From the NCBI GenBank assembly GCA_023664385.1, contig JAMPFU010000020.1:1-49302 (forward strand): 49,302 bases of DNA, read 5' to 3'. A program made the position numbers and the translations under genes. The notes under the pieces are model-generated. The model worked only from the letters and a program-made list of their open reading frames with translations. It was not told where the DNA came from and ran no database searches. How positions within the stretch are numbered: the first letter of the stretch is position 1; every line of letters begins with the position of its first letter. Positions 11,782 to 40,012 of this stretch are shown piece by piece. Source of the stretch: Clostridium sp. Its GTDB lineage: Bacteria; Bacillota; Clostridia; Lachnospirales; Lachnospiraceae.

Positions 11782-12354
11782 GTGGAAACTAAGAATATCA
11801 TGATTGTAGGTGTCGGTGGACAGGGTACTCTGCTTACAAGCCGCATACTTGGCGGAATAACGGTTGATGCAGGATATGACGTTAAGCTTTCTGAGGTTCA
11901 TGGCATGGCACAGAGAGGCGGAAGTGTTGTTACATTTGTAAGATATGGCGATATGGTTGCAGAGCCGATTGTTGAGGAGGGGCAGGCGGATGTGCTGATT
12001 GCCTTTGAGAGACTTGAGGCGATGCGGTATGCGCATTTTCTGAAGGAGGACGGCGTTATTGTTGTAAACGATTGGCGCATAGACCCTATAACCGTAGTTA
12101 CGGGTGCAGCAAAATATCCTGACAATATTATAGAGGAGCTGGGAAAAAAGCATAAGGTTTATTCCATAAATGCAATGGAGGAGGCAGAAAAGCTCGGCAA
12201 TGTGAAGGCATTTAATGTTATTGTTTTGGGACTTGCCGCAAGACATATGGACTTTTCCGAGGAGGCATGGCTCAAGGTAATAGAAAACACAGTGCCGCCA
12301 AAGACGATTGACATAAACAAAAAGGCTTTCCTTTGTGGATATAAGGGAGTGTAA
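11782..12354 (+). CDS. iorB: Indolepyruvate:ferredoxin oxidoreductase, beta subunit
   Basis: The 190-aa protein starts at GTG 11782 behind an AGGAGGGA site that overlaps the end of iorA. The N-terminal GVGGQGTLLTSRILGG and SEVHGMAQRGGSV are diagnostic of the gamma-type domain of 2-oxoacid:ferredoxin oxidoreductases, which binds CoA. It assembles with IorA. Length is typical. The gene is the last before the first large fold-back (12371-12532), which may help end or process the transcript. Confidence 0.93.
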   Translation: METKNIMIVGVGGQGTLLTSRILGGITVDAGYDVKLSEVHGMAQRGGSVVTFVRYGDMVAEPIVEEGQADVLIAFERLEAMRYAHFLKEDGVIVVNDWRIDPITVVTGAAKYPDNIIEELGKKHKVYSINAMEEAEKLGNVKAFNVIVLGLAARHMDFSEEAWLKVIENTVPPKTIDINKKAFLCGYKGV

Positions 12355-12370
12355 TTTCGGTTATACTATC

Positions 12371-12532
12371 AAGGAGATGCTGCTCTAAGAATATTCATAT
12401 CATAAATCAAAATCGTTTGAAGACGTCGGTACTTAGGTGACGTATTTTGGCACCTTAGTACCGTTACGTCGGAGACGAGCGAAAGCGTATTTTGTTATTA
12501 TGATATGAATATTCTTAGAGCGACATCTCCTT
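12371..12532. repeat. Fold-back element A (162 bp imperfect palindrome)
   Basis: The 35-nt arm at 12371-12405 is the reverse complement of 12498-12532 with only two mismatches (AAGGAGATGC at the left, its complement at the right). Inside is a second stem: GGTACTTAGGTG (12428-12439) against CACCTTAGTACC (12451-12462), one mismatch. The right half holds a 34-nt core, 12455-12488, beginning TTAGTACCGTTACGTCGG and ending GAGCGAAAGCGT, that is identical to 19087-19120 in element C. The element fills the gap between iorB and the amidohydrolase. It has no T-run, so it is not a standard terminator. It could be a small mobile repeat or a structured RNA. Confidence 0.85.
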
Positions 12533-12561
12533 AGAAAGATAATATTATGTGAGGTATGCAC

Positions 12562-13359
12562 ATGGTTATAGATTTTCACGCACATGTTTTTCCTGAGAAA
12601 ATGGTTGCCGGAGCAGTAAAGACCTTAGAGGAAAAATCAGGCGTTCCTGCGAAAACAAACGGATGTATAGACGGGCTGCTCGCCTCCATGGAACAGGCGG
12701 GAGTAAGCCGTTCCGTTGTGCTTCCGGTTGTTACGGCGCCGAAGCAGTTTTCGGGAATAAACAGATTTGCGGCATCGATTAATGAGGAATTTTCGGACCG
12801 TCTTACTTCCTTTGGCGGTATTCATCCCGATAGTGAAGATTATAAGGGACAGCTTAAATTTTTAAAGGAGGAAGGCTTTGTTGGCATTAAGCTTCACCCT
12901 GATTATCAGGGTGTTATGTTTAATGACATAAGATATAAGAGAATTGTGGACTATGCCTCTGAGCTTGACATGATTATTCAGGTTCATGCAGGCGTGGACA
13001 TCGGACTTCCCGACCCGGTTCACTGCACGCCTAAGATGGCGTTGGAGGTAATTTCAGAGACGGGAGCAAAAAAGCTTGTGCTTGCGCATTTTGGAGGCTG
13101 GAAGCTATGGGATGAGGTCGAGGAGCTTCTTGCAGGCAGGGACGTTTATTTTGACACTGCATTTATAGAGGGCTACATTGATAGAAGGCAGTTTGAGCGG
13201 ATTGTAAAAGCGCATGGAAACGATAAGGTGCTTTTTGCAACGGACAGCCCGTGGTCGGGGCAGAAGGAAACCATAGACTGGATAAATGCCTGTGACCTTG
13301 ACGATGAAACGAAAGAAAAAATATTTTACAAAAATGCAAGGAGGCTGCTTGGTATATAA
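12562..13359 (+). CDS. Amidohydrolase-family metal-dependent hydrolase
   Basis: The protein is 265 aa from ATG 12562, 7 nt after GAGG (12551-12554); an ATG at 12556 lies too close to that site. It reads as a TIM-barrel hydrolase of the amidohydrolase_2 (aminocarboxymuconate decarboxylase-like) group: DFHAHVFP metal motif at the N-terminus, GIKLHPDYQG, IQVHAGVD, LAHFGGWKLWDE and a C-terminal ATDSPW with the metal-binding Asp. Substrate cannot be told from sequence. It is separated from iorB by fold-back element A, so a link to aromatic catabolism is possible but unproven. A small terminator overlaps its stop codon. Confidence 0.85.
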   Translation: MVIDFHAHVFPEKMVAGAVKTLEEKSGVPAKTNGCIDGLLASMEQAGVSRSVVLPVVTAPKQFSGINRFAASINEEFSDRLTSFGGIHPDSEDYKGQLKFLKEEGFVGIKLHPDYQGVMFNDIRYKRIVDYASELDMIIQVHAGVDIGLPDPVHCTPKMALEVISETGAKKLVLAHFGGWKLWDEVEELLAGRDVYFDTAFIEGYIDRRQFERIVKAHGNDKVLFATDSPWSGQKETIDWINACDLDDETKEKIFYKNARRLLGI

Positions 13360-13369
13360 GCAGCTTTTG
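13344..13369 (+). terminator. Terminator overlapping the amidohydrolase stop
   Basis: GCTGCTT (13344-13350) pairs with AAGCAGC (13358-13364), loop 7 nt, followed by TTTTG. The right arm includes the stop codon. The stem is short but perfect. The next 230 nt to the symporter gene are AT-rich with no gene visible. Confidence 0.55.
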
Positions 13370-13598
13370 TAAAAAGGTATTGATTTTTTTGTAGAAATGT
13401 TATTTAATCGTATAAGCGGTAGTTATTATGTGTATTTATGTCCATATTGCTTTGATGCGTTAAAGCGTAACGGTGTAAAGCGTTAGAAATGTGACGATTT
13501 ATAGCATAAGGCTGTATTTAAGAGATAACTGATATATTGTAGCTTAAAAGCACCGCTGTGAAATACATAGCAGGGTTTCCTGCGGAAAGAGGAGAGAA

Positions 13599-15104
13599 AT
13601 GGTAGTAAAAGTAGCAATGTTGGTTGTTTTTTTCTCGGTAATGATTGCAGTAGGCATTTACTGTAGAAAACACGCAACAGATGTAAACGGTTTTGTTCTT
13701 GGAGGAAGAAGCGTAGGTCCATGGCTTACGGCATTTGCTTATGGAACATCATATTTTTCAGCCGTAATATTTGTCGGATATGCAGGGCAGTTTGGCTGGA
13801 AGTTCGGTATTGCCTCCACATGGATAGGAATAGGAAATGCATTTATAGGCTCGTTGCTTGCATGGGCTGTACTTGCAAGAAGAACGAGAACCATGACGCA
13901 GAAGCTTGACAGTAAAACAATGCCTGAGTTTTTTGGAACACGATTTGATTCCACAATGCTTAAGGTTGTCGCTTCAATTATCGTGTTTATTTTCCTTATT
14001 CCATATACTGCATCGCTGTACAATGGTCTTTCAAGACTTTTCGGTATGGCGTTCAATCTTGACTATACGGTATGTATCGTTGTAATGGCTGTTCTTACGG
14101 GAATATATGTTATCGCAGGCGGCTATATGGCAACTGCCATCAATGACTTTATTCAGGGACTAATTATGCTCATAGGAATTGTTGCTGTCATTGCATCTGT
14201 ACTTAGCTCAAACGGTGGTTTTATGGAATCGTTAAAGAGCCTTGCGCAGGTAGAGGACGCTGCCGTATCAGAAACACCGGGTGTATTTGCCTCTTTCTTT
14301 GGTCCTGACCCATTTAGCCTGCTTTGTGTCGTTATACTTACCTCGCTTGGTACATGGGGACTTCCTCAGATGGTGCAGAAATTTTACGCAATAAAGGATG
14401 AAAAGGCAGTAGAAAAGGGAACGGTTATTTCAACATTTTTTGCATTCGTTGTTGCGGGAGGCTGTTATTTCTTAGGTGGATTTGGACGTCTGTATGACAT
14501 AGATGTTGCTGCTGTTGGCTTTGATGCAATTATTCCTGCAATGGTAGAAAAGCTTTCGCCGTTTTTGATTGCCGTGGTAGTTGTGCTTGTGCTTTCAGCT
14601 TCCATGTCAACGCTTTCGTCACTTGTGCTTGCCTCAAGCTCAACGCTTACAATCGACCTTATCAAGGGAGCAATTATGAAAAACCTTGAGGAGAAAAAGC
14701 AGGTGCTTATTATGAGGGCATTTATTGTTGTGTTTATTGCCATATCAGCAATTATCGCAGTCATTCAGTACAAGAATAATGTTACGTTTATAGCGCAGCT
14801 TATGGGTGTTTCATGGGGCGCTCTTGCAGGAGCATTTCTTGCACCGTTCATTTACAGCTTATACTGGAAGGGTGTTACAAAGATTTCCGTTATCGTAAAC
14901 TTTATATTCGGTTCGGGAATTATGATTGCAAATATGCTGTTCAGGGAGTCATTCCCGACACTTCTCCAGTCGCCGATTAACTGTGGCGCATTTGCAATGG
15001 TTGCAGGACTTATTATTGTTCCTGTTATAAGTCTTATTACGCCAAAGCCGGATAAGGAAAAGGTTGCAGAAATGTTTAAGCCTTATGAGGCTTCAGAAAA
15101 TTAG
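13599..15104 (+). CDS. Sodium:solute symporter family transporter
   Basis: The 501-aa protein starts at ATG 13599 behind AAGAGGAGAG. It is strongly hydrophobic with about 13 predicted membrane segments. Family marks include the early VNGFVLGGRSVGPWLTAFAYGTSYFSA segment in the first helices and ASMSTLSSLVLASSSTLTIDL in the region that lines the Na+ site. Members (PutP, PanF and relatives) import amino acids, vitamins or sugars with Na+; the solute cannot be assigned. The gene stands alone, with about 240 nt upstream and the 578-bp fold-back B immediately downstream. Confidence 0.88.
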   Translation: MVVKVAMLVVFFSVMIAVGIYCRKHATDVNGFVLGGRSVGPWLTAFAYGTSYFSAVIFVGYAGQFGWKFGIASTWIGIGNAFIGSLLAWAVLARRTRTMTQKLDSKTMPEFFGTRFDSTMLKVVASIIVFIFLIPYTASLYNGLSRLFGMAFNLDYTVCIVVMAVLTGIYVIAGGYMATAINDFIQGLIMLIGIVAVIASVLSSNGGFMESLKSLAQVEDAAVSETPGVFASFFGPDPFSLLCVVILTSLGTWGLPQMVQKFYAIKDEKAVEKGTVISTFFAFVVAGGCYFLGGFGRLYDIDVAAVGFDAIIPAMVEKLSPFLIAVVVVLVLSASMSTLSSLVLASSSTLTIDLIKGAIMKNLEEKKQVLIMRAFIVVFIAISAIIAVIQYKNNVTFIAQLMGVSWGALAGAFLAPFIYSLYWKGVTKISVIVNFIFGSGIMIANMLFRESFPTLLQSPINCGAFAMVAGLIIVPVISLITPKPDKEKVAEMFKPYEASEN

Positions 15105-15125
15105 AATACAAGCAATTAAGGTTGC

Positions 15126-15703
15126 CACAGTAAGGATTTAAGGCACATATAAAATTACACAGACAAGCCTCTTATATTTTGTATTTTTATGGTTACCGGC
15201 TATCTTTAGCATATTGATATTTTGTCTTTTCTATTATGTGGGGCACGTACTGTTGTCTGAGTGCACAGCCTTATGCTGCCAAACGATATGTGTATTTTGA
15301 ATTGCAACTTTTTAAGACCGCAAGAATACCTCACATTTGAAATTTGCGATGTATGATTACATGCTGCTTAAGCGAAACTCGCTTCGCTCAGACAACGCTT
15401 CGCAGCATGTTCCATCGCAAATTATCAAATGTGGGTATTCTAAACGGTCTTGTTGACAAATTCAAAATACACATACCGTTGGCTGCATGGCTGTGTACGA
15501 GTTCAAGGGAGTGCCCCACAAGCCATAATAGAACGAAGTTCGAATATTAGCATGGTTCGCAGAACCATGCCGATAGAAAACGTAGTTTTCTATCAGAGAA
15601 AAGCAAAATATCTTAATATGCTTAGATAGCCAGGTTGTAAAAATACAAAATAAAAGAAGGCTTGTCATGGGTAAACAACTGTGTGCCTTAAATCCTTACT
15701 GTG
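15126..15703. repeat. Fold-back element B (578 bp nested imperfect palindrome)
   Basis: The outer arms 15126-15147 and 15682-15703 are perfect inverted repeats (CACAGTAAGGATTTAAGGCA and two more bases). Pairing continues inward almost all the way: ACAAGCCT...TATTTTGTATTTTTA, GGCTATCT...AGCATATT, ATATGTGTATTTTGAATT, and TTTGCGATG (15343-15351) with CATCGCAAA (15413-15421). The right arm has about 65 extra bases holding two private hairpins, GCATGGTTC/GAACCATGC (15550-15570) and GATAGAAAAC/GTTTTCTATC (15572-15594). The apical loop contains CATGCTGC/GCAGCATG (15360-15367, 15402-15409). It occupies nearly the whole gap between the symporter and a sensor kinase. No credible gene lies inside. Arms with side hairpins suggest a structured RNA or a decayed fold-back transposon. 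Confidence 0.88.
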
Positions 15704-15737
15704 ATAGCCCCTTTAATAATGTAGGAGAATTGTTATA

Positions 15738-16841
15738 GTGGAAGAAAATGGATATACGGGTCAGGAAACTGTCGTTGCATGGAAAAAATACGGTAATGTG
15801 TTTGTAAAAAAAGTGACGTGGCTGTTTGCCGCGTCCTTTGTGCTGTCATTTTTGGCGGCGGGCGTGGTTTACGTTATGACGAGGACCTTGGCTGCCGCAA
15901 TGGTAACGCTTGCGTCGGGGCTTGCTTTGTCATGTATCAGCATTTTTATATACAGGCTTTGCGACGATTACATATCCCGGATTATAGCGGATTTGTCTGA
16001 CCTTTTGGATGTGCTTATGAATTTGCAGGAGAAAAATGTTTTTGCTGAAAATGAGGACACGCTCTTGTCAAAGCTTCAGACGAAGGTAATCAAGCTTGTG
16101 AGGATTTTAAAAAGACAAAACGAGAGGTCCATATGGGAAAAGGAAAATATAAAGTCGCTTGTGTCTGACATTTCCCATCAGCTAAAAACACCTCTCGCAA
16201 ACCTTAAAATATATACGGGACTTTTGGAGGAGGGTGCCCTTGACGATGCAGGAAGAAAAGCCTGCATGGACACCCTGAATAAGACGGTGGATAAGCTTGT
16301 ATTTTTATCCGAAAGCATTATAAAAATATCAAGGCTTGAGGGTGGCATTATCAATCTCAATCTGTCATATGCGAGCCTGAATGAAACTGTGCTGATGGCA
16401 GTAAAGGACATATACGAAAAGGCGGCAAGGAAAAATGTGGAACTCATATACAAGGACGAGGCAAAGATAAGCATTTTGCATGACAGGAACTGGACGAGGG
16501 AAGTGGTGTTTAATCTTCTTGACAACGGAGTAAAGTATGCCAAAAAGGGCGGCTGCATAAAGCTTACGGTAAGGGAGTACGGCATGTTTGCCGCTGTGCT
16601 TGTCGAGGACGAAAACGGTGCCATAAGCGAGGAGGAGCAGGCAAAAATATTTACAAGATTTTACCGTGGCAAAAACGGCATAAATGAGGAGGGTCTGGGA
16701 CTTGGACTTTACCTTGCAAGGGAAATCACCATAAAGCAGGGCGGATATATGAACTTAAAAACAACGGACAGAGGAAATATATTTCAGCTTTATATCAGTA
16801 AGTCTGTGGAAAAAAATAAAAAAACTGACGTGGATATATAG
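15738..16841 (+). CDS. Membrane sensor histidine kinase (orphan)
   Basis: The 367-aa protein starts at GTG 15738, 9 nt after AGGAGA. Two adjacent membrane helices near residues 27-75 leave almost no extracellular loop. The HisKA box is SDISHQLKTPLANL with phospho-accepting H147; the ATPase domain has the N box (FNLLDNGVKYAKKGG), F box (IFTRFYRGK) and G2 box (GLGLGLYLA). The G1 box reads DENGAIS rather than the usual DxGxG, a possible weakening. The design resembles small intramembrane-sensing kinases of BceS type. No response regulator gene is beside it; fold-back B lies directly upstream and a second kinase directly downstream. Confidence 0.88.
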   Translation: MEENGYTGQETVVAWKKYGNVFVKKVTWLFAASFVLSFLAAGVVYVMTRTLAAAMVTLASGLALSCISIFIYRLCDDYISRIIADLSDLLDVLMNLQEKNVFAENEDTLLSKLQTKVIKLVRILKRQNERSIWEKENIKSLVSDISHQLKTPLANLKIYTGLLEEGALDDAGRKACMDTLNKTVDKLVFLSESIIKISRLEGGIINLNLSYASLNETVLMAVKDIYEKAARKNVELIYKDEAKISILHDRNWTREVVFNLLDNGVKYAKKGGCIKLTVREYGMFAAVLVEDENGAISEEEQAKIFTRFYRGKNGINEEGLGLGLYLAREITIKQGGYMNLKTTDRGNIFQLYISKSVEKNKKTDVDI

Positions 16842-16943
16842 AGGACACATCCCATTGCTACAATGAATACAGATGAGAAAAACGATGCTTTTGGAAATAT
16901 CCGTTTTGCTCATTACTGTGTAAAGATGGAAGGAGGTCTTTTT

Positions 16944-18821
16944 ATGAAATTTACAATTCTACCTGATATGGAAGCAAAAAAGGAAAATCGGCAGAGAAGA
17001 AAACGGATGAAAAGGGAAAGAGCGATTGTAAGAAATGACAGGCGTAGGCGTAAGGCACTTTCAAAACGTGACAGCTTTTGGAAACTATTTATAAAAAGGT
17101 GGGTCGTAATCGTGATGATTGGTGCTGTAATTTGTGCCATGGGAACGGTTATGGTGGAAAGAAACAGCTACATGGAGGTTAAAAGGGTATATGAAGCTTG
17201 GAAGCTTGGCATATACCATGATGCATTACTTGCCACGCTTGAGCTGGATTCCTATGGAGATATGTATACAGACGAAGAAAAACAGGCAATGTTTGCTGCA
17301 AGGGTAAGGGCAGCTATGCTTGTGCAAAATCATAGCAGTATGTATGATTTTTCGGCAACCATGTATGAGAGAGACTCTGATAAAGGAGTTGTAAATAAGG
17401 TGTGCGACTCGCAGGAGGGCATTGTTCTTCGTGTCAAGAAAGTTAATGATATGGAAATGCACGCAAATGTTTGGTACCCGACAGAAGAAATTATGTATTA
17501 TGAATGTCCAAATGAAGTATTTGGCGATATTGTTGACAGTATAAAGGATATTGGTGTATATGATAAAGACGGCTCATACTTAACCTTGGGGATACATGAC
17601 TGTTATATAAAAGGAACTGAGTTTAGACCAGGCATTATGACGATAACAGCAGTTGATGGGGACGGTTTGATAACAAACAGAAAAACCTATGACCTTACAC
17701 CCGAAAATACAGAGGGCTGGTTTCATATTGACAGTGATGAGGAGCAGGAAAAGCGATTTGCTGCGGCAGAAGGGGAAGCAGGAGCATATCCGTACTATGA
17801 TATGATACTTTATGTTGGTGGTACGAGAAAAGATAGTCCTGCATATGTGGAAACCAACACCATGGAGTATGGGGATAATGGCAATGGAGGAATGTATATA
17901 AGCTTTGGCACAAATCATGGCAGTATTGGAAGAAACGACCTTGAAAATTATAGGTCAGAATATGAGCTATACAGTGGATGGGAAGATATACCGCCTATAA
18001 AATGGAAAAGCATGGGGAAACTTTATACCATACAAACATATGGCTACTACGATTTTTACGAGTACCATATGGACGACTGCATCAAGGCATATTGCCTCGC
18101 TGCCATGCTTGCGACTATGCTTGCGCTTCTTATGGCAAGGGTCAGGTGGCTAAGGGTAAAAACCCAATATGAAATCGAGGATTACAGGAAAAGCTTGACG
18201 GATGCCATGGCGCATGATTTAAAAAGTCCTCTTATGGCACTTTCAGGATTTGCAGAAAATCTGAAGGATAACGTACACACGGAAAAACGGGGGTACTATG
18301 CAGGCGTCATTTCAGAAAACGTAGCTTATATGAATGGCATTATTGAGCATATTCTTGAGCTTTCCAAGACGGAAACAAACGACATGAAGCTGAAAAGGGA
18401 AAGCTTGAAGCTGCAGACATTATTTGACGAGGCAGTTTCCAAATATGAGGGACAGATAGATAAAAAGAGGCTCACGGTAGATATTGAGGGAGATTGCACC
18501 ATAAACGCAGACAGACAGCTTATGCTGCAGGCGGTAGACAATCTTATATCCAATGCAGTTAAATTTTGCAATGACGAGAGCATCATCAATATTGTATGTG
18601 GCAAAAATTACATGACAATAAGCAATCCCTACACTGCCAGTGAGGATGAGCCTGACGAGCTCGAATTGTTAAAGCCGTTTGTAAAGGGGTCGGCGAGCCG
18701 CAGCAACAAGTCGGGAAGCGGCGTGGGACTTACAATTGCAAAGAACATATTTGAGCTTCATGGATATAAGCTGACCTTAAAAAGAGCCGAAGATACATTT
18801 ACCGTCAAAGTCAGCTTTTAA
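16944..18821 (+). CDS. Membrane sensor histidine kinase with large extracytoplasmic domain
   Basis: The 625-aa protein starts at ATG 16944, 7 nt after AGGAGG (16931-16936); the frame opens upstream without a ribosome site. A very basic N-terminal 45 residues precede a first membrane helix (VVIVMIGAVICAMG). About 320 residues outside the cell follow, rich in Tyr, Asp and Gly and of no family I recognise. A second helix (AYCLAAMLATMLALLMA) leads to HisKA (AMAHDLKSPLMAL, H424), an N box (VDNLISNAVKFC) and G2 box (SGSGVGLTIAKN). It follows another kinase by 102 nt and ends at fold-back C. Neither kinase has a neighbouring regulator. Confidence 0.88.
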   Translation: MKFTILPDMEAKKENRQRRKRMKRERAIVRNDRRRRKALSKRDSFWKLFIKRWVVIVMIGAVICAMGTVMVERNSYMEVKRVYEAWKLGIYHDALLATLELDSYGDMYTDEEKQAMFAARVRAAMLVQNHSSMYDFSATMYERDSDKGVVNKVCDSQEGIVLRVKKVNDMEMHANVWYPTEEIMYYECPNEVFGDIVDSIKDIGVYDKDGSYLTLGIHDCYIKGTEFRPGIMTITAVDGDGLITNRKTYDLTPENTEGWFHIDSDEEQEKRFAAAEGEAGAYPYYDMILYVGGTRKDSPAYVETNTMEYGDNGNGGMYISFGTNHGSIGRNDLENYRSEYELYSGWEDIPPIKWKSMGKLYTIQTYGYYDFYEYHMDDCIKAYCLAAMLATMLALLMARVRWLRVKTQYEIEDYRKSLTDAMAHDLKSPLMALSGFAENLKDNVHTEKRGYYAGVISENVAYMNGIIEHILELSKTETNDMKLKRESLKLQTLFDEAVSKYEGQIDKKRLTVDIEGDCTINADRQLMLQAVDNLISNAVKFCNDESIINIVCGKNYMTISNPYTASEDEPDELELLKPFVKGSASRSNKSGSGVGLTIAKNIFELHGYKLTLKRAEDTFTVKVSF

Positions 18822-18828
18822 AGTAGCG

Positions 18829-19283
18829 GGCTGCCACACCTACGGACAACCCTGACAGTTGTATGTGCGTAAAACCCTTCGTACACGTTGGTACTCGAAT
18901 TGCCTTGTACGGATTAGATGATACAGTAACAAAAAACACGCTTTCGCTCATCTCCGACGTAACGGTACTAAGAGTTGGTGCATGAGAATGTTTATACGGG
19001 CAACCAAAACCGTTTGGAGACGTCGGTACTTAAATTGCCGGTCCCAGTTATTCCTTTTATATAAGGATAGCTTAGACCGGCAATTTTTAGTACCGTTACG
19101 TCGGAGACGAGCGAAAGCGTGTTTTGGTTGCCTGTATAAGACATTCCCTGCACCAACTCAAGTACCGACGTCTCCAAACGGTTTTTTGTTACTGTATATC
19201 TATCCGTACTGGCAATTCTTAGTACCAGTATGCCTAAGAATACGCACATACAACCGTCAGGGTTATCTGTAGGTGCGGCAGCC
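18829..19283. repeat. Fold-back element C (455 bp nested palindrome at convergent gene ends)
   Basis: The outer 43-nt arms, 18829-18871 and 19241-19283, match with four mismatches (GGCTGCC start, GTTGTATGTGCGTA end). The arms stay complementary to an apical hairpin, AAATTGCCGGTC (19032-19043) with GACCGGCAATTT (19075-19086). Two motifs occur in both orientations: GACGTCGGTACTTA (19019-19032; inverted near 19162) and TTAGTACCGTTACGTCGG... (19087-19120; inverted near 18938-18972). The element is thus a hairpin nested inside copies of itself. The 34-nt core 19087-19120 is identical to 12455-12488 in element A. It exactly fills the gap between the kinase stop and the end of the minus-strand gene. 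It may serve as a two-way terminator. Confidence 0.88.
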
Positions 19284-19286
19284 TCT

Positions 19287-20405
19287 TTAATGCTGGATTG
19301 TAATGCTGCCCATATCGCAGTCTATTTCAATCATTGTATTTCCACTGTCGTTATATGCTCTGCCCATGTTTGCACCGTTGATGGTTACGCTGCCCATGTC
19401 ACAGTCAAGGTCAAAGCCGCAGCGTGCGTTTCCTGTAAGCGAGATTGTGGCATTTCCCATGTCAAGGTCTGCTGTCAGCCTGTCTTCTATATGTGTATCA
19501 GACATATCAAGCCCGCCCATATCAAGACTTACATCAGCAGATGAAATATCGGTATTTAAAATGTCGATGCCGCCCATGTCAAGGTCAGCGTCAATTTGAC
19601 CTATCACACAGCCCGTTATATCCATGCTACCCATGTCAAGGTCAGCATCAATTTTGTTGATTGTACAGTCTGTTATACTTAAGCTGCCCATATCAAGGTC
19701 AATGTCCATATTGTTTATGGCTGCATCGGAAACCTCAATGCCGCCCATATCAAGCTTTGTCGTCAGGCTGTTTATGTCAGCACCCGCAGGGTAATAAATA
19801 TTGATATAGTCGTCAGGCTTATCGTTTATTCCAAAGCTTAACCGTACAAAGGTCCATGCGCTGTCATCAAATATCAATTTTTTGTTATGTATTTTATAAA
19901 GCGTACGCTTGCTGCTTGTTATGCTGTATTCAATATAGTAATCATCAGAAGGGATAAGATATACCGTGGCATATTGTGCGTCTATGTCTATATTGTCAAT
20001 TTCTTCTATTTTGGTCTTTGCAAGTGTAGTTACCTGCCCTGAGTCGCCGATAGCAAGACGGTTTGCGTTATCATCCCAATAAAGAACATGTCCCGAAAGT
20101 CCGAGCAAAGCAAAAAATCCCACAAAAACAACGATAAATAAAATTATAATAGTAAAAATAATTCTTCGTAAGGGATGCTTTTTCTTGCCCTTTTGTGGAG
20201 CAGGAGAGGATTTTTCACCCAGCTCCGTATCTATGATATTGCTTGCAAGATCCTTTGGAGTTCCAAGCTTTTCAATCAAATCCTCGCCGTTTGCCACAAG
20301 CTTTGCCGTATGGTCATTATAAAATTCAAGAATTTTCGTTTTGCGGTCCATAGGAAGGACTGCAAGGTAGCTGCCAAGCTCAGTTAAATATTTATCTCTG
20401 TTCAT
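19287..20405 (-). CDS. DUF1700/HAAS-type membrane protein with DUF4097-like repeat domain
   Basis: The 372-aa protein starts at 20405 behind GAGGGG. Residues 1-75 resemble the HAAS/DUF1700 helical domain (NRDKYLTELGSYLAVLP, YNDHTAKL). One membrane helix lies at about 84-106 (IIFTIIILFIVVFVGFFALLG). The rest is a DUF4097-like beta-solenoid built on a repeated xxDLDMGxxxI unit of about 20 residues, present at least six times. Such proteins are often encoded after a PadR regulator and respond to envelope stress; no PadR gene is adjacent here. A promoter with an operator-like palindrome lies upstream at 20491-20531. Function is unknown. Confidence 0.75.
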   Translation of the reverse strand: MNRDKYLTELGSYLAVLPMDRKTKILEFYNDHTAKLVANGEDLIEKLGTPKDLASNIIDTELGEKSSPAPQKGKKKHPLRRIIFTIIILFIVVFVGFFALLGLSGHVLYWDDNANRLAIGDSGQVTTLAKTKIEEIDNIDIDAQYATVYLIPSDDYYIEYSITSSKRTLYKIHNKKLIFDDSAWTFVRLSFGINDKPDDYINIYYPAGADINSLTTKLDMGGIEVSDAAINNMDIDLDMGSLSITDCTINKIDADLDMGSMDITGCVIGQIDADLDMGGIDILNTDISSADVSLDMGGLDMSDTHIEDRLTADLDMGNATISLTGNARCGFDLDCDMGSVTINGANMGRAYNDSGNTMIEIDCDMGSITIQH

Positions 20406-35681: not shown

Positions 35682-36467
35682 TTATCCCTCCCAGCTCGTT
35701 ACGTTGCACTTAAAGAAAATGTTGTCTGTGTCCTTTGTGATGTCGTTGTTTCCGCCGTATCCTACGGCACCCTCCTTATAAAATGAAACATAAAGCTGGG
35801 GATTGGAAATATCCTCTATTTTCATATTCTCGATACTCTCTTTGGATATGCCATAAACTGCAAGTATCGTGATTGTTTCCCCTGCATCAATTGTAAGCTG
35901 CATGCCCTCCTGTATCTCAAACTCATTCTCGTTGGCAATACACATAATATCTGCTATGTATTTTTTTTGTTCTCCGTCACATATTACAATCTGTAATTCT
36001 GCCGGAAGATACTCCATCTGCTCATCCAGACAGTTTTTCACATCAATGGGGATTACGACAAAATATCCGTGGTATGCAGCATCGTCTGCCAAAATTTCAC
36101 ACGGCACGTTTTCGGCTTCCCGGTAAAAGTCAGCCTCTCCAAACTTAAACGCATAGCCGCCTATGTCGATAAAATCATTACTTTCAAGCACATTTCCCTT
36201 GGCAGCCACCAAATCCGTCTGTACCTTAAGCATATACTCCCAGTTTGGACGCCCCCGGACAACCTTTCCTTCTGCTTTTTCCGAAGCTTCTTCGGCAGAG
36301 GTATTTACCATTTCGCCTGTGTCAGCTTCATCAGTACCCATTCCATTGCTGTCGACTTCTTCGGTTGATGCAGTATCTTGATGTCTTAATTTACCCACAA
36401 TAAAAACAACAGACAGGCATAGGACGAGGCTGAGCAGAATTACATATTTTTTCTTCCTGTTATTCAT
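35682..36467 (-). CDS. Membrane-anchored 261-aa protein, copy 1
   Basis: The 261-aa protein starts at 36467. A positively charged start (MNNRKKKY) and helix (VILLSLVLCLSVVFIVG) anchor it, with the rest outside. A Thr/Glu/Ser-rich linker (about 30-70) precedes a globular part with FIDIGGYAFKFGEADFYRE, VVIPIDVKNCLDEQMEY and a C-terminal strand-rich segment. It is one of three near-identical copies (others 37342-38130 and 39227-40012). The last 90 residues are identical among all three; the middle of this copy differs. It follows the secreted 159-aa gene copy 1 and precedes the ABC genes, so an accessory role in export, immunity or signalling is likely (inference). Confidence 0.68.
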   Translation of the reverse strand: MNNRKKKYVILLSLVLCLSVVFIVGKLRHQDTASTEEVDSNGMGTDEADTGEMVNTSAEEASEKAEGKVVRGRPNWEYMLKVQTDLVAAKGNVLESNDFIDIGGYAFKFGEADFYREAENVPCEILADDAAYHGYFVVIPIDVKNCLDEQMEYLPAELQIVICDGEQKKYIADIMCIANENEFEIQEGMQLTIDAGETITILAVYGISKESIENMKIEDISNPQLYVSFYKEGAVGYGGNNDITKDTDNIFFKCNVTSWEG

Positions 36468-36500
36468 AATCTGTACTCTCCTATCAAATATATGGGTTAT

Positions 36501-36533
36501 CAGACGATTGCGAAAATGCTTCGCAATCGTCTG
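36501..36533 (-). other. Perfect stem-loop between secreted-protein and anchored-protein genes, copy 1
   Basis: A 14-bp perfect stem, CAGACGATTGCGAA (36501-36514) with its complement at 36520-36533, and a 5-nt loop. On the coding (minus) strand it is followed by ATAACCC, not a T-run. It probably slows decay or partly stops transcription, giving more of the small secreted protein than of the downstream products. The same stem recurs at 38164-38196. Confidence 0.7.
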
Positions 36534-36545
36534 ACAAGGTTTTTG

Positions 36546-37025
36546 TTATGGCAATACTGTTATGTCGCTGCCGGTATATGCGCTGTCAGGACTCCACCTG
36601 CCTCGTAGCCTGCCGTAACCGCTTTTTGCCCTGAAACCAAGACTTTCACGGGCATACCCACGCTCCTTTGTATAGTTGGATATGTGGTATTTTCCCAGTT
36701 TGTTTATTGTATAATAGCCTCCCGTGGTTGCAGTGTTTGTCCTTACATCACTGCTGGAAGATGAACCGTAAGGTGCCACATATAAGTTGTGTAATGACGA
36801 TGCCATATATGTAATATTGCAGTAGCTTTTTGAGTAGTCTTCTTTATTACGGAATCCCGTATATATCGGTGATGAGCTGTCCGTCTGTACACTAAACCCA
36901 AACGCGGTATCACCTGTATTTGCCGCATTAACGTACATTGCTGCACCTGAGAAAATAATCATAATAAGAATAGCAGTTACAACAAGCATAATTTTGTTCA
37001 TAAGGGTAGATTCTTTTTTAATCAT
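36546..37025 (-). CDS. Secreted 159-aa protein, copy 1 (bacteriocin-like candidate)
   Basis: The 159-aa precursor starts at 37025, 6 nt after GGAGGAG. A signal peptide (KIMLVVTAILIMIIFSGAAMYVNAA) is followed by a probable cleavage near Asn-Ala-Ala and a mature part of about 125 residues. That part is rich in Ser, Tyr and Gly with one Cys, ending in GYGRLRGRWSPDSAYTG. The plan (signal, small polar domain, late Gly-Trp-Ser-Pro-Asp motif, neighbouring ABC exporter) recalls secreted DUF2712 or lactococcin-972-like proteins; I cannot confirm membership. Copy 2 (38209-38688) is nearly the same, with changes concentrated in the first half of the mature protein. Confidence 0.65.
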   Translation of the reverse strand: MIKKESTLMNKIMLVVTAILIMIIFSGAAMYVNAANTGDTAFGFSVQTDSSSPIYTGFRNKEDYSKSYCNITYMASSLHNLYVAPYGSSSSSDVRTNTATTGGYYTINKLGKYHISNYTKERGYARESLGFRAKSGYGRLRGRWSPDSAYTGSDITVLP

Positions 37026-37085
37026 ATAATACTCCTCCTTTTTTGTAGGTTATTTGACACTGTTTTTTCATTATTTGTATCTTGG

Positions 37086-37213
37086 AAAACTTTTCAACCT
37101 ATGCCTTCCCTCCTTTCTAATATTTACAATACAATTTTACTTTGAATAGCCAATATTTTTTGCATGAACGACACGTTTTTTGCATGAACGACACGTTTTG
37201 AAATAAAAACTTT
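37086..37213. repeat. 120-bp indel bounded by 8-bp direct repeats
   Basis: AAAACTTT occurs at 37086-37093 and 37206-37213. In the paralogous leader of copy 2 only one AAAACTTT remains (38749-38756) and flanking bases join directly, so 120 bp are present here and absent there. The extra DNA holds the two 20-bp tandem repeats (37161-37200) and, on the minus strand, an AT-rich promoter-like stretch and AAAGGAGGG. The rest of the 316-nt gap 37026-37341 is cassette leader with no gene. Confidence 0.7.
37161..37200 (-). promoter_or_regulatory. Two tandem 20-bp direct repeats, regulator-site candidate
   Basis: TGCATGAACGACACGTTTTT (37161-37180) is repeated at 37181-37200 with one change at the last base. 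On the coding strand each reads CGTGTCGTTCATGCA. Two helical turns apart, with a CGTTCAT core, they resemble paired LytTR-type sites (usually 21 bp apart), about 140-180 nt before the secreted-protein start. The same repeats occur inverted at 49271-49302. Confidence 0.55.
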
Positions 37214-37341
37214 GTAAGCTTCGACACTCCCCCTTTTCTTTTGGTACTATCACATTACATGACGTGTAATAATTATAGGTTTTTTCTCAAATTTTTCGGA
37301 TTTGTGTTTAAAAGGTAAAAAAACGTACATGAACCTTCCTG

Positions 37342-38130
37342 TTATCCCTCCCAGCTCGTTACGTTGCACTTAAAGAAAATGTTGTCTGTGTCCTTTGTGA
37401 TGTCGTTGTTTCCGCCGTATCCTACGGCACCCTCCTTATAAAATGAAACATAAAGCTGGGGATTGGAAATATCCTCTATTTTCATATTCTCGATACTCTC
37501 TTTGGATATGCCATAAACTGCAAGTATCGTGATTGTTTCCCCTGCATCAATTGTAAGCTGCATGCCCTCCTGTATCTCAAACTCATTCTCGTTTGCAATA
37601 CATTTGATTTCCCCGTAATATTTTTTTTGTTCTCCGTCACATACTACAATCTGTAATTCTGCCGGGTAATACTCCATCTGCTCATCTAGGCAGTTTTTCA
37701 CATCAATGGGAATTACGACAAAATATCCGCAGTATGCAGCACGGTCTGTCGGAATTTCATACGGCACGTTTTCGACTTCCCGGTAAAAATCAGCCTCTCC
37801 AAACTTAAACGCAAAGCCGCCTATGTCGATAAAATCATCACCTTCAAGCACATTTCCCTTGGCAGCCACCAAATCCGTCTGTACCTTAATCATATACTCC
37901 CAGTCCGGTCGTCCCATGTCAACCTTTCCTTCCACTTTTTCCGAAGCTTCTTCGGCAGAGGTATTTACCATTTCATCTATATTACCTTCTTCAGCACCTA
38001 TTCCACTGCTGTCGGCGGTTTCTTCGGTTGATGCAGTATCTTGATGTCTTAATTTACCCACAATAAAAACAACAGACAGGCATAGGACGAGGCTGAGCAG
38101 AATTACATATTTTTTCTTCCTGTTATTCAT
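37342..38130 (-). CDS. Membrane-anchored 262-aa protein, copy 2
   Basis: This 262-aa paralogue of copy 1 (35682-36467) has the same N-terminal anchor and C-terminal half. Its linker differs (TADSSGIGAEEGNIDEM) and the middle has GGFAFKFGE, VPYEIPTDRAAYCGY and YYGEIKCIANE. From about residue 90 onward its protein equals copy 3 (39227-40012). It ends with the same TTATCCCTCCCAGCTCG tail as the others. Downstream is not the 184-aa gene but a second secreted-protein gene, so this copy is an extra cassette unit. Function unknown, presumably that of copy 1. Confidence 0.68.
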   Translation of the reverse strand: MNNRKKKYVILLSLVLCLSVVFIVGKLRHQDTASTEETADSSGIGAEEGNIDEMVNTSAEEASEKVEGKVDMGRPDWEYMIKVQTDLVAAKGNVLEGDDFIDIGGFAFKFGEADFYREVENVPYEIPTDRAAYCGYFVVIPIDVKNCLDEQMEYYPAELQIVVCDGEQKKYYGEIKCIANENEFEIQEGMQLTIDAGETITILAVYGISKESIENMKIEDISNPQLYVSFYKEGAVGYGGNNDITKDTDNIFFKCNVTSWEG

Positions 38131-38163
38131 AATCTGTACTCTCCTATCAAATATATGGGTTAT

Positions 38164-38196
38164 CAGACGATTGCGAAAATGCTTCGCAATCGTCTG
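38164..38196 (-). other. Perfect stem-loop between cassette genes, copy 2
   Basis: The stem 38164-38177 with 38183-38196 is identical to that at 36501-36533, as is the surrounding spacer between the two cassette genes. Conservation of the spacer supports either very recent duplication or gene conversion. Confidence 0.7.
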
Positions 38197-38208
38197 ACAA
38201 GGTTTTTG

Positions 38209-38688
38209 TTATGGCAATACTGTTATGTCGCTGCCGGTATATGCGCTGTCAGGACTCCACCTGCCTCGTAGCCTGCCGTAACCGCTTTTTGCCCTGAAAC
38301 CAAGACTTTCACGGGCATACCCACGCTCCTTTGTATAGTTGGATATGTGGTATTTTCCCAGTTTGTTTATTGTATAATAGCCTCCCGTGGTTGCAGTGTT
38401 CGTCCTTACATCACTGCCGGAAGATGAACCGTAAGGCGCCGCATATAAGCTGTTTAATGACGGTGCCATATATGTAATGTTGCAGTAGCTTTTTGAGTAG
38501 TCCTCTTTATCACGGATTCCCGTATATATCGGTGATGAGCTGTCCGTCTGTACACTAAACTCAAATATTGTATCTTCTGTATCAGCCGCATTAACGTACA
38601 TCACTGCACCTGAGAAAATAATCATAATAAGAATAGCAGTTACAATAAGCATAATTTTATTCATAAGGGTAGATTCTTTTTTAATCAT
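38209..38688 (-). CDS. Secreted 159-aa protein, copy 2 (bacteriocin-like candidate)
   Basis: This paralogue of 36546-37025 has the same length, signal peptide type and ribosome site. The final part, from SDVRTNTATTGG to the end, is identical. Differences cluster between residues 33 and 95: NAADTEDTIFEF against NAANTGDTAFGF, GIRDKED against GFRNKED, APSLNSLYAAPYGSSSGS against ASSLHNLYVAPYGSSSSS. Its leader lacks the 120-bp insert with tandem repeats found before copy 1, so the two may be expressed differently. It probably shares the downstream ABC exporter. Confidence 0.65.
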   Translation of the reverse strand: MIKKESTLMNKIMLIVTAILIMIIFSGAVMYVNAADTEDTIFEFSVQTDSSSPIYTGIRDKEDYSKSYCNITYMAPSLNSLYAAPYGSSSGSDVRTNTATTGGYYTINKLGKYHISNYTKERGYARESLGFRAKSGYGRLRGRWSPDSAYTGSDITVLP

Positions 38689-39226
38689 ATAATACTCCTC
38701 CTTTTTTGTAGGTTATTTGACACTGTTTTTTCATTATTTGTATCTTGGAAAACTTTGTAAGCTTCGACATTCCTCCTTTTCCTTTTTGTACTATCACATA
38801 TATGACGTGTAATAATTATAGCTTTTTTTCCTCAAATTTTTCGGATTTGTGTTTAAAAGGTAAAAAAACGTACATGAAATGCATTTTAAACATCAAAATC
38901 AGCACAATGCGGATAGAGCAGGCTGCTATATGCGTACCCATCCTTTGTATATTTTGGTGCTTGAATTACCTTCCGATTTATTCCTAATTTATAACTGATT
39001 GATTCGTTTTACAATATGTCTGGCACACTTGGTCTGCTTTTAGGCATAATTAGATGATATTGGCAAGGATATCTCTGTAACGAATGCCTGTTCACGTTCA
39101 AAACAACGGTAGCCCCCCTTTTCTTTTGGTACTATCACATTACATGACGTGTAATAATTATAGGTTTTTTCTCAAATTTTTCGGATTTGTGTTTAAAAGG
39201 TAAAAAAACGTACATGAACCTTCCTG
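38689..39226. other. 538-nt spacer with cassette leader fragments and a possible gene remnant
   Basis: Both ends are cassette leader: the stretch with TGACGTGTAATAATTATAG and CTCAAATTTTTCGGATTTGT occurs here twice (about 38790-38875 and 39127-39215) and once at about 37240-37330. Between 38879 and 39115 is unique sequence. On the minus strand 39047 to 38886 reads as a short frame broken by a stop at 39009-39011 (tail ...KYTKDGYAYSSLLYPHC). It may be the remains of a lost gene; I do not recognise it. Confidence 0.35.
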
Positions 39227-40012
39227 TTATCCCTCCCAGCTCGTTACGTTGCACTTAAAGAAAATGTTGTCTGTGTCCTTTGTGATGTCGTTGTTTCCGC
39301 CGTATCCTACGGCACCCTCCTTATAAAATGAAACATAAAGCTGGGGATTGGAAATATCCTCTATTTTCATATTCTCGATACTCTCTTTGGATATGCCATA
39401 AACTGCAAGTATCGTGATTGTTTCCCCTGCATCAATTGTAAGCTGCATGCCCTCCTGTATCTCAAACTCATTCTCGTTTGCAATACATTTGATTTCCCCG
39501 TAATATTTTTTTTGTTCTCCGTCACATACTACAATCTGTAATTCTGCCGGGTAATACTCCATCTGCTCATCTAGGCAGTTTTTCACATCAATGGGAATTA
39601 CGACAAAATATCCGCAGTATGCAGCACGGTCTGTCGGAATTTCATACGGCACGTTTTCGACTTCCCGGTAAAAATCAGCCTCTCCAAACTTAAACGCAAA
39701 GCCGCCTATGTCGATAAAATCATCACCTTCAAGCACATTTCCCTTGGCAGCCACCAAATCCGTCTGTACCTTAATCCTATACTCCCAGTCCGGACGCCCC
39801 CTGACAACCTTTCCTTCTACTTTTTCCGAAGCTTCTTCGGCAGAGGTATTTACCATTTCGCCTGTGTCAGCTTCATCAGTACCCATTCCATTGCTGTCGA
39901 CTTCTTCGGTTGATGCAGTATCTTGATGTCTTAATTTACCCACAATAAAAACAACAGACAGGCATAGGACGAGGCTGAGCAGAATTACATATTTTTTCTT
40001 CCTGTTATTCAT
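39227..40012 (-). CDS. Membrane-anchored 261-aa protein, copy 3 (mosaic)
   Basis: The 261-aa protein starts at 40012 behind AAAGGAGGG, with a different upstream region from the other copies. Its first 75 residues follow copy 1 (VDSNGMGTDEADTGEMVNT, VVRGRP), while the remainder equals copy 2 (GFAFKFGE, VPYEIPTDRAAYCGY). The join lies near the GRPDWEY segment. This is a recombinant of the other two, or the parent from which each took a part. It has no secreted 159-aa gene in front of it. It is the most upstream gene of the minus-strand array. Confidence 0.68.
   Translation of the reverse strand: MNNRKKKYVILLSLVLCLSVVFIVGKLRHQDTASTEEVDSNGMGTDEADTGEMVNTSAEEASEKVEGKVVRGRPDWEYRIKVQTDLVAAKGNVLEGDDFIDIGGFAFKFGEADFYREVENVPYEIPTDRAAYCGYFVVIPIDVKNCLDEQMEYYPAELQIVVCDGEQKKYYGEIKCIANENEFEIQEGMQLTIDAGETITILAVYGISKESIENMKIEDISNPQLYVSFYKEGAVGYGGNNDITKDTDNIFFKCNVTSWEG

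What the first reader, a model, noticed from the sequence alone, without database searches (positions are those of the whole stretch)
12371..19283. Three giant nested fold-backs within 7 kb, two sharing an identical 34-nt core
Elements of 162, 578 and 455 bp each fold back on themselves nearly end to end and fill intergenic gaps. 12455-12488 equals 19087-19120 base for base, so A and C are one family. They hold no credible gene. This is far larger than REP or ordinary terminators and may be a family of non-autonomous mobile elements or long structured RNAs.
Basis: partly seen in the sequence, partly recalled or inferred. Interest (0 to 1): 0.85.

Follow-up and report, generated by a model that had tools for sequence, protein, structure and literature searches.

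The report
Nested mobile DNA hairpins in bacteria
The three giant fold-backs are copies of mobile DNA hairpins, one of them stacked like a Russian doll, and two are built around a small folded core that recurs in many related bacteria and fits no family in the RNA library searched.

Summary
A (12371-12532), B (15121-15706) and C (18829-19283) are long palindromes far beyond chance and multi-copy in the genome. A and C share a ~90-nt core (M). B lacks M but its copies end in GGGGCTGTCRCAGTAAG, nearly the terminal repeat of a complete IS1182-family element in an IMG/VR contig. I read all three as non-autonomous (MITE-like) palindromes.

C has two clear nested M layers and a degenerate third. At one orthologous locus one species has two layers, another three; the extra layer sits where the inner tip hairpin was. 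This fits published hairpin-targeting by IS1272 (IS1182 family).

M is a three-way junction with a GNRA-type mini-hairpin and strong covariation (18 of 22 pairs with double changes). It matches in 149 of 397 genomes of the family, 131 of 334 genera, and no Rfam family. Its flanking arms pair with each other in 28 of 28 loci, yet mostly differ between loci.

Not shown: a working transposase in these genomes, any transcript, or M's function.

The parts
12371..12532 (.). Element A: 162-bp palindrome filling most of the gap between a pyruvate:ferredoxin oxidoreductase subunit gene and an amidohydrolase gene
   Evidence: multi-copy relatives
12371..12405 (.). A, left arm (ends look like a decayed AAGGGGCTGTCGCACTAAG-type end)
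   Evidence: comparison (L176) by eye
12498..12532 (.). A, right arm
12407..12492 (+). Core module M in A (three-way junction, GAAA mini-hairpin on the 3' side)
   Evidence: (98.3 bits; this copy is in the model)
12455..12488 (+). The 34-nt identical core = 3' half of M
15121..15706 (.). Element B: ~586-bp palindrome with GTTGCCACAGTAAG / CTTACTGTGATAGC ends (class-1 type)
15534..15596 (.). Extra stretch in this B copy (small hairpins); absent or shorter in the 7 other copies aligned; limits approximate
18829..19283 (.). Element C: 455-bp layered palindrome between convergent genes; class-1-like ends GGCTGCCACACC
18880..18904 (+). Degenerate outermost M layer, 5' part
   Evidence: read by eye by analogy; not found by the scan
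18933..18972 (-). Second M layer (inverted), its 3' half
19004..19124 (+). Innermost M layer with its AAATTGCCGG tip hairpin
   Evidence: (75.6 bits)
19087..19120 (+). Second copy of the 34-nt core
19159..19185 (-). Second M layer (inverted), its 5' half
19211..19232 (+). Degenerate outermost M layer, 3' part
   Evidence: 19220, 3 mismatches in 13

Best explanation
A, B and C are non-autonomous, palindromic transposable elements (MITE-like) with IS1182-type terminal repeats. Shown: they are repeated, present or absent between relatives at the same locus, and C-type copies are built in nested layers. Inferred: they are moved in trans by an IS1182-family transposase that, like IS1272, inserts into DNA hairpins (often terminators) and deletes part of the hairpin. 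Because each insertion delivers a new hairpin, the next one can land in its tip, so symmetrical stacks such as C grow from the centre. A and C carry a conserved three-way-junction module M that is selected as a fold (shown by covariation). I think M is most likely the element's own mobility determinant or preferred landing hairpin, acting as single-stranded DNA or as RNA (inferred).
For: Multi-copy in the own genome and in relatives. Empty or different occupancy at orthologous sites. A site: G021, G035, G036 have 47 nt and no palindrome by eye; G004 and G020 have another M element there. B site: short hairpins in G020 and G035, a different M hairpin in G003; C site: nothing palindromic by eye in G021. 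The class-1 end matches the end of a complete IS1182-family element, L200; an A-type copy, L176, has GGGGCTGTCGCACTAAG letter for letter (L200 has one G more). A second M-bearing end class resembles the ends of an IS1182-like relic, L098 (weak, 9 shared letters). Two versus three nested layers at one locus, L198 against L163. Covariation in M. IS1272 and TnSha1 insert into hairpins and terminators with deletion of stem-loop sequence and no target duplication (PMC4923244; PMC5678879).
Against: No IS1182 transposase above the curated cut-off in 37 genus genomes, only weak or partial matches in 6; DDE_Tnp_1 in 1 of 6 element-rich genomes, the relic. So the mobiliser is absent, lost or of another family. 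The only complete IS1182 element with these ends lies in a viral contig of unknown host. The L163/L198 difference could also be loss of a layer. Within single genomes the arms next to M partly change base by base with pairing kept (G325), which fits compensatory or templated change as well as re-insertion. M's orientation to genes is about random (22 sense, 29 antisense). Target-site duplications were not tested formally.
Confidence: 0.6

Rival explanations
1. M is a structured RNA of the bacteria (or a selfish RNA-based element): a transcribed three-way junction with a GNRA tetraloop, whose stem arms only need to pair. The palindromic shells are its stem plus hitchhiking transposon ends.
For: 22-pair structure with 94.2% of cells paired and covariation 0.491 against 0.183 shuffled. 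One junction pair takes all four Watson-Crick forms in 32 of 32 sequences. Tetraloop GNRA with a complementary stem in 31 of 32 aligned sequences (the exception L231 has AAAA) and, read by eye, GNRA in 36 of 36 further copies (its script mis-parsed 2). Arms free in sequence but paired in 28 of 28 loci.
Against: No strand preference relative to genes. M occurs in both orientations inside one element. High copy number and nesting fit a transposon better. In the genus alignment one copy has AAAA (L062) and three have a broken or wobble mini-stem (L176, L189, L191). No transcript data.
Confidence: 0.25
2. They are simply large transcription terminators at gene ends.
For: M copies lie between convergent genes in 23 of 82 placeable cases against 53 of 383 background gene pairs (copies are not independent). 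A-rich flanks outside many B ends. At the B site two relatives have short hairpins, terminator-like by eye.
Against: High similarity between unlinked copies (92-97% for many of the longest matches), absence at orthologous sites and nested internal modules are not explained by termination alone. They may still terminate transcription as a side effect.
Confidence: 0.08
3. REP/BIME-type elements moved by a RAYT or other Y1 (HUH) transposase.
For: Palindromic, intergenic, multi-copy.
Against: Y1_Tnp matches in 0 of 6 element-rich genomes, while 5 of 14 control genomes ring. Elements are about 140-590 bp, not 20-40.
Confidence: 0.03
4. Assembly artefact of short-read metagenome bins.
For: Many contigs of the own genome end inside B; all 59 stretches found in genome contigs are titled MAG.
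Against: Arms are imperfect complements, copies lie in different flanks, the same elements occur in several separate assemblies, and M matches in genomes listed with one contig (G226, G267, G317, G426).
Confidence: 0.02

Closest known systems
IS1182-family insertion sequences (IS1272 / TnSha1)
   Same: Terminal repeat matches that of an IS1182-family element (L200). Reported to insert into hairpins and terminators, deleting stem-loop sequence, without target duplication (PMC4923244, PMC5678879; passages read).
   Different: Here the elements have no gene, are palindromic over nearly their whole length, some stack inside one another, and no intact transposase was found in the genus.
Bacterial MITEs; BOX/RUP/SPRITE of Streptococcus pneumoniae
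   Same: Short, gene-free, repeated, intergenic. BOX, RUP and SPRITE also insert into one another (PMC10969869, passages read).
   Different: Concentric symmetrical nesting and a conserved three-way-junction core found across many genera.
REP/BIME and CGTC-tagged palindromic repeats
   Same: High-copy intergenic palindromes; CGTC repeats also lack a known dedicated transposase (PMC3733652, passages read).
   Different: REPs are 20-40 bp with a GTAG or CGTC tag; M is ~90 nt with a junction and a second hairpin; no Y1 transposase in the 6 genomes tested. The held text of that paper has no word beginning Firmicutes or Clostridi.

Membership tests
MITE (non-autonomous IS derivative) | Short, no gene, many copies at unrelated sites | tested here: met
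MITE (non-autonomous IS derivative) | Terminal inverted repeats shared with an autonomous IS | tested here: met
   class-1 ends against L200; the IS lies in an IMG/VR contig, not in the host genome
MITE (non-autonomous IS derivative) | Occupied and empty orthologous sites | tested here: met
   A site, C site, L102 site
MITE (non-autonomous IS derivative) | Target-site duplication | tested here: inconclusive
   flanks listed show no obvious duplication by eye; no formal test
IS1182/IS1272-type hairpin-targeting element | IS1182-type terminal repeat | tested here: met
IS1182/IS1272-type hairpin-targeting element | Transposase available in the same genome | tested here: not met
   0 of 37 genus genomes above cut-off; weak or partial matches in 6
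IS1182/IS1272-type hairpin-targeting element | Insertion into a hairpin with loss of the stem-loop | tested here: inconclusive
   L163 against L198 fits tip replacement but direction is not proven; one clean pair only
REP/RAYT system | Y1 transposase (PF01797) in the genome | tested here: not met
   0 of 6 genomes
REP/RAYT system | 20-40 bp unit | tested here: not met
   core alone is ~85-95 nt
Known structured RNA family (Rfam 15) | Match at or above gathering score | tested here: not met
   window; 12300-19350 at E <= 5: 4 weak hits, all far below gathering scores; 20 of the 29 family-level loci: 1 sub-threshold hit, outside M
Structured RNA (generic) | Covariation supporting one fold | tested here: met
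   cannot separate RNA from single-stranded DNA
Structured RNA (generic) | Transcription | not testable with these tools
   no RNA-seq on hand

The most novel reading that the evidence does not exclude
M is a new kind of mobile genetic unit: a ~90-nt three-way-junction nucleic acid with a GNRA loop that spreads through Lachnospiraceae as the tip of hypervariable hairpins, uses its own tip as a landing pad, and so builds concentric hairpin stacks. It may act through RNA.
Probability: 0.35. Interest if true: 0.87.

Novelty: new variant of a known kind. Interest (0 to 1): 0.72.

Why it matters
A conserved folded module matching in about 38% of the family's genomes sampled (149 of 397), with no match in the Rfam release searched, is a large unannotated feature of a major bacterial family. 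Its nested copies record successive events at one spot, which makes hairpin-targeted transposition testable by sequence alone. B copies also coincide with many contig ends in the own assembly. If M acts as RNA, it would be a new widespread structured RNA.

Tried and rejected
Autonomous partner: PF13751 in the own genome (0 matches), PF05598 (2 matches, both partial genes), the L097 protein stretch across 37 genus genomes (own copy plus 2 partial hits in G010), NF033551 across 37 (none above cut-off), PF01797 in 6 (0), PF01609 in 6 (only the own relic). Searching IS1182-like loci (L130, L132-L137, L139) for flanking inverted repeats gave nothing convincing. M left-half pattern in IMG/VR: 0 stretches. 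M 3'-half pattern in IMG/VR: 1 stretch, L199, without a palindrome; I treat it as chance. A looser class-1 pattern gave 20 IMG/VR stretches, of which I examined only L200. I looked for split M halves flanking a gene in the loci held then: unpaired 3' halves appeared in L156, L244 and L255 (L255 overlaps L244); I read L156 and L244 and saw no transposase between halves by eye. 'Each copy inserted into an unrelated hairpin' as the only cause of arm variation: (G325) shows partly gradual, pairing-preserving change, so I do not claim it.

The first ORF-orientation count had a faulty ORF caller and is discarded; one search replaces it. In one search I read L245 at the wrong offset and noted it as a false positive (note); one search shows a proper M hairpin there. 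One search used 28 of the 29 family-level loci L222-L250 (L245 left out). A2 used 27 of those 29 (L244 and L245 left out) plus 5 others. A1 used 35 of 41 short-tip copies. The GNRA script missed several A1 rows by its position limits, so for A1 I rely on reading.

Literature: 10 searches. None of the listed papers was, by title and abstract start, on nested palindromic elements or such a module in Lachnospiraceae; lists were cut (for example 12 of 487) and most subscription journals are not in that library. I saw passages of PMC5678879, PMC4923244, PMC3733652 and PMC10969869; all others only as listings with abstract starts.
Full report
Observation. The three fold-backs are real and much longer than chance allows. 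A is 12371-12532, B 15121-15706, C 18829-19283. A lies between a pyruvate:ferredoxin oxidoreductase subunit gene and an amidohydrolase gene. B lies between a sodium:solute symporter gene and a histidine kinase gene. C lies between a histidine kinase gene and a convergent DUF4097 gene.

Which bacteria. The genomes of the genome search are unnamed. G004, G003 and G035 share contig lengths with records JAAVIA, DKZK (UBA7076) and CAMWGV, titled Lachnospiraceae, so I take family f1 to be Lachnospiraceae. Other records with the core are titled Clostridium, Bacteroides, Bacillota or Lachnospiraceae; all are MAGs.

Copies. In the own genome (3.17 Mb, 80 contigs) A gives 46 match segments, B 117 and C 39. 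I group the B segments into about 40 places, of which about 30 touch a contig end. B has matches in 8 of 37 genus genomes including the own one (6 of 18 among the more complete ones) and many segments in G000, G004, G020 and G021. A-like elements and the inner ~260 bp of C are multi-copy in G003, G004 and G035. In three such copies from G004 and G035 the inner part has different arms between it and the ends (L115, L126, L127).

Same locus in relatives. A site: G021, G035 and G036 have 47 nt and no palindrome by eye; G004 and G020 have a different M-bearing palindrome with AATTGCGAAAC-type ends; for G003 only the 3' flank was recovered. B site: G020 has a short hairpin GGGGCTGCCGC..GCGGCAGCCCC, G035 an unrelated hairpin, G003 another M hairpin; in G004, G021 and G036 the sequence after the gene is unrelated. 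C site: G020 has C, G004 a cousin with other arms, G021 nothing palindromic by eye, and for G003 only the 3' flank was found, next to another gene.

Ends. Most B copies end in GGGGCTGTCRCAGTAAG or close variants. The A-type copy L176 ends in AAGGGGCTGTCGCACTAAG on both sides; other A copies have decayed forms. C copies end in GGGCTGYCRCAC or close variants. One IMG/VR contig, L200, begins with a 2-kb element with ends GGGGGCTGTCGCACTAAG .. AGTGCGACAGCCCC. Its 576-aa frame scores 328.5 bits for NF033551, IS1182 family, cut-off 270. A second end class, with GAGCAAAAC, occurs in some M elements and flanks an IS1182-like relic in the own genome (L098); this link is weak. No IS1182 gene above cut-off was found in 37 genus genomes, no Y1 transposase in 6, and DDE_Tnp_1 only in the relic. 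Mobilisation by an IS1182 enzyme is therefore inferred from ends and from published behaviour of IS1272 and TnSha1 (PMC5678879; PMC4923244), not shown.

Nesting. In C the half-modules run 3'(-), 5'(+), 3'(+), 5'(-), followed by a degenerate 3'(+) of an outer layer whose 5' part I see only by eye. At one orthologous locus, L198 (G004) has the order 5+ 3- 5- 3+ (two layers) and L163 (G003) 5+ 3- 5+ 3+ 5- 3+ (three layers). The extra unit, arms included, stands where the AAATTGCCGG tip hairpin of the second layer stands in L198. Insertion with tip replacement is the simpler reading; loss of a layer is not excluded. At the B site G003 shows another nested case, read by eye: an arm pair and a truncated core inside an M tip.

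The core M. Thirty-five copies (A1) gave a model of 88 positions. It matches 149 of 397 family genomes at E <= 1e-4, 131 of 334 genera. The E-values are rough, at most 11 candidates were scored per genome, and one genome per species is held. I looked at 29 of these loci, the ones handed out (L222-L250): 28 and L245; each shows M with arms that pair (scores). In the cross-genus alignment A2 (32 sequences) a 22-pair three-way junction has 94.2% of cells paired, 18 pairs with double changes and covariation 0.491; shuffles average 0.183 and slid versions reach at most 0.127. I chose the pairs on this same alignment, so the counts lean towards the structure. The mini-hairpin loop fits GNRA in 31 of 32, in 36 of 36 further copies by eye and in 34 of 35 copies of A1 by eye. 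Rfam has no such family.

The arms. In 28 loci the two arms just outside the matched stretch align with each other (mean score 17.3, minimum 9.5). Arms of different loci do so less (mean 5.8, 95th percentile 8.0, maximum 16.5). Left arms of different loci score above 15 in 1 of 378 pairs (the next is 14.5), with a mean of 5.9. In 36 further copies from six genomes the arm score is 10 or more each time; within G325 and G102 M is 90-98% identical while the outer arm segment differs in most pairs and still pairs with its partner. In G325 parts of that change look gradual, so pairing-preserving change, by selection or by templated correction, is a serious alternative to repeated insertion into different hairpins.

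Context. Of 97 M instances, 7 lie inside a frame of 90 aa or more and 15 could not be placed between two frames. Of 82 placed, 51 are co-directional, 23 convergent and 8 divergent; background pairs are 287, 53 and 43. Among the 51, M is sense in 22 and antisense in 29. Frames were called by a simple script and copies of one family are not independent. The lack of strand preference speaks against a simple sense-strand RNA role, while the GNRA loop speaks for RNA; both stand.

Judgement. Mobile, non-autonomous palindromes, some nested: strongly supported. IS1182-type mobilisation and hairpin-tip insertion: likely. The role of M: open, and the most interesting part.

Noticed in passing
window 35682-40012: Minus-strand ORFs of 261, 159, 262, 159 and 261 aa in a row suggest a tandem gene duplication; inverted repeats at 36500-36534 and 38163-38197 lie in the two short gaps.
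   Followed up: no
window 15104-15738: The genes on either side of B are about 8.7 kb apart in G004 and 9.8 kb apart in G003, so B sits at a rearrangement junction in the own genome.
   Followed up: partly
window 15534-15596: This B copy carries about 60 extra nt made of small hairpins that the 7 other copies aligned lack or have shorter.
   Followed up: no
own genome, contigs with B: About 30 of about 40 B places touch a contig end (my count), so B may be a main cause of assembly breaks.
   Followed up: no
window 19305-19754: The DUF4097 gene carries repeats with 57-nt spacing.
   Followed up: no
L231 65-163: Sub-threshold match to RF01699 Clostridiales-1 RNA (33.7 bits, gathering 48), outside M.
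   Followed up: no
L166 around 5256 (minus strand): An M copy in bin RUG14549 with a tandem-like duplication in its tip.
   Followed up: no
L200 2055-3137: A minus-strand frame that looks by eye like a tyrosine integrase lies next to the IS1182-family element in an IMG/VR contig.
   Followed up: no
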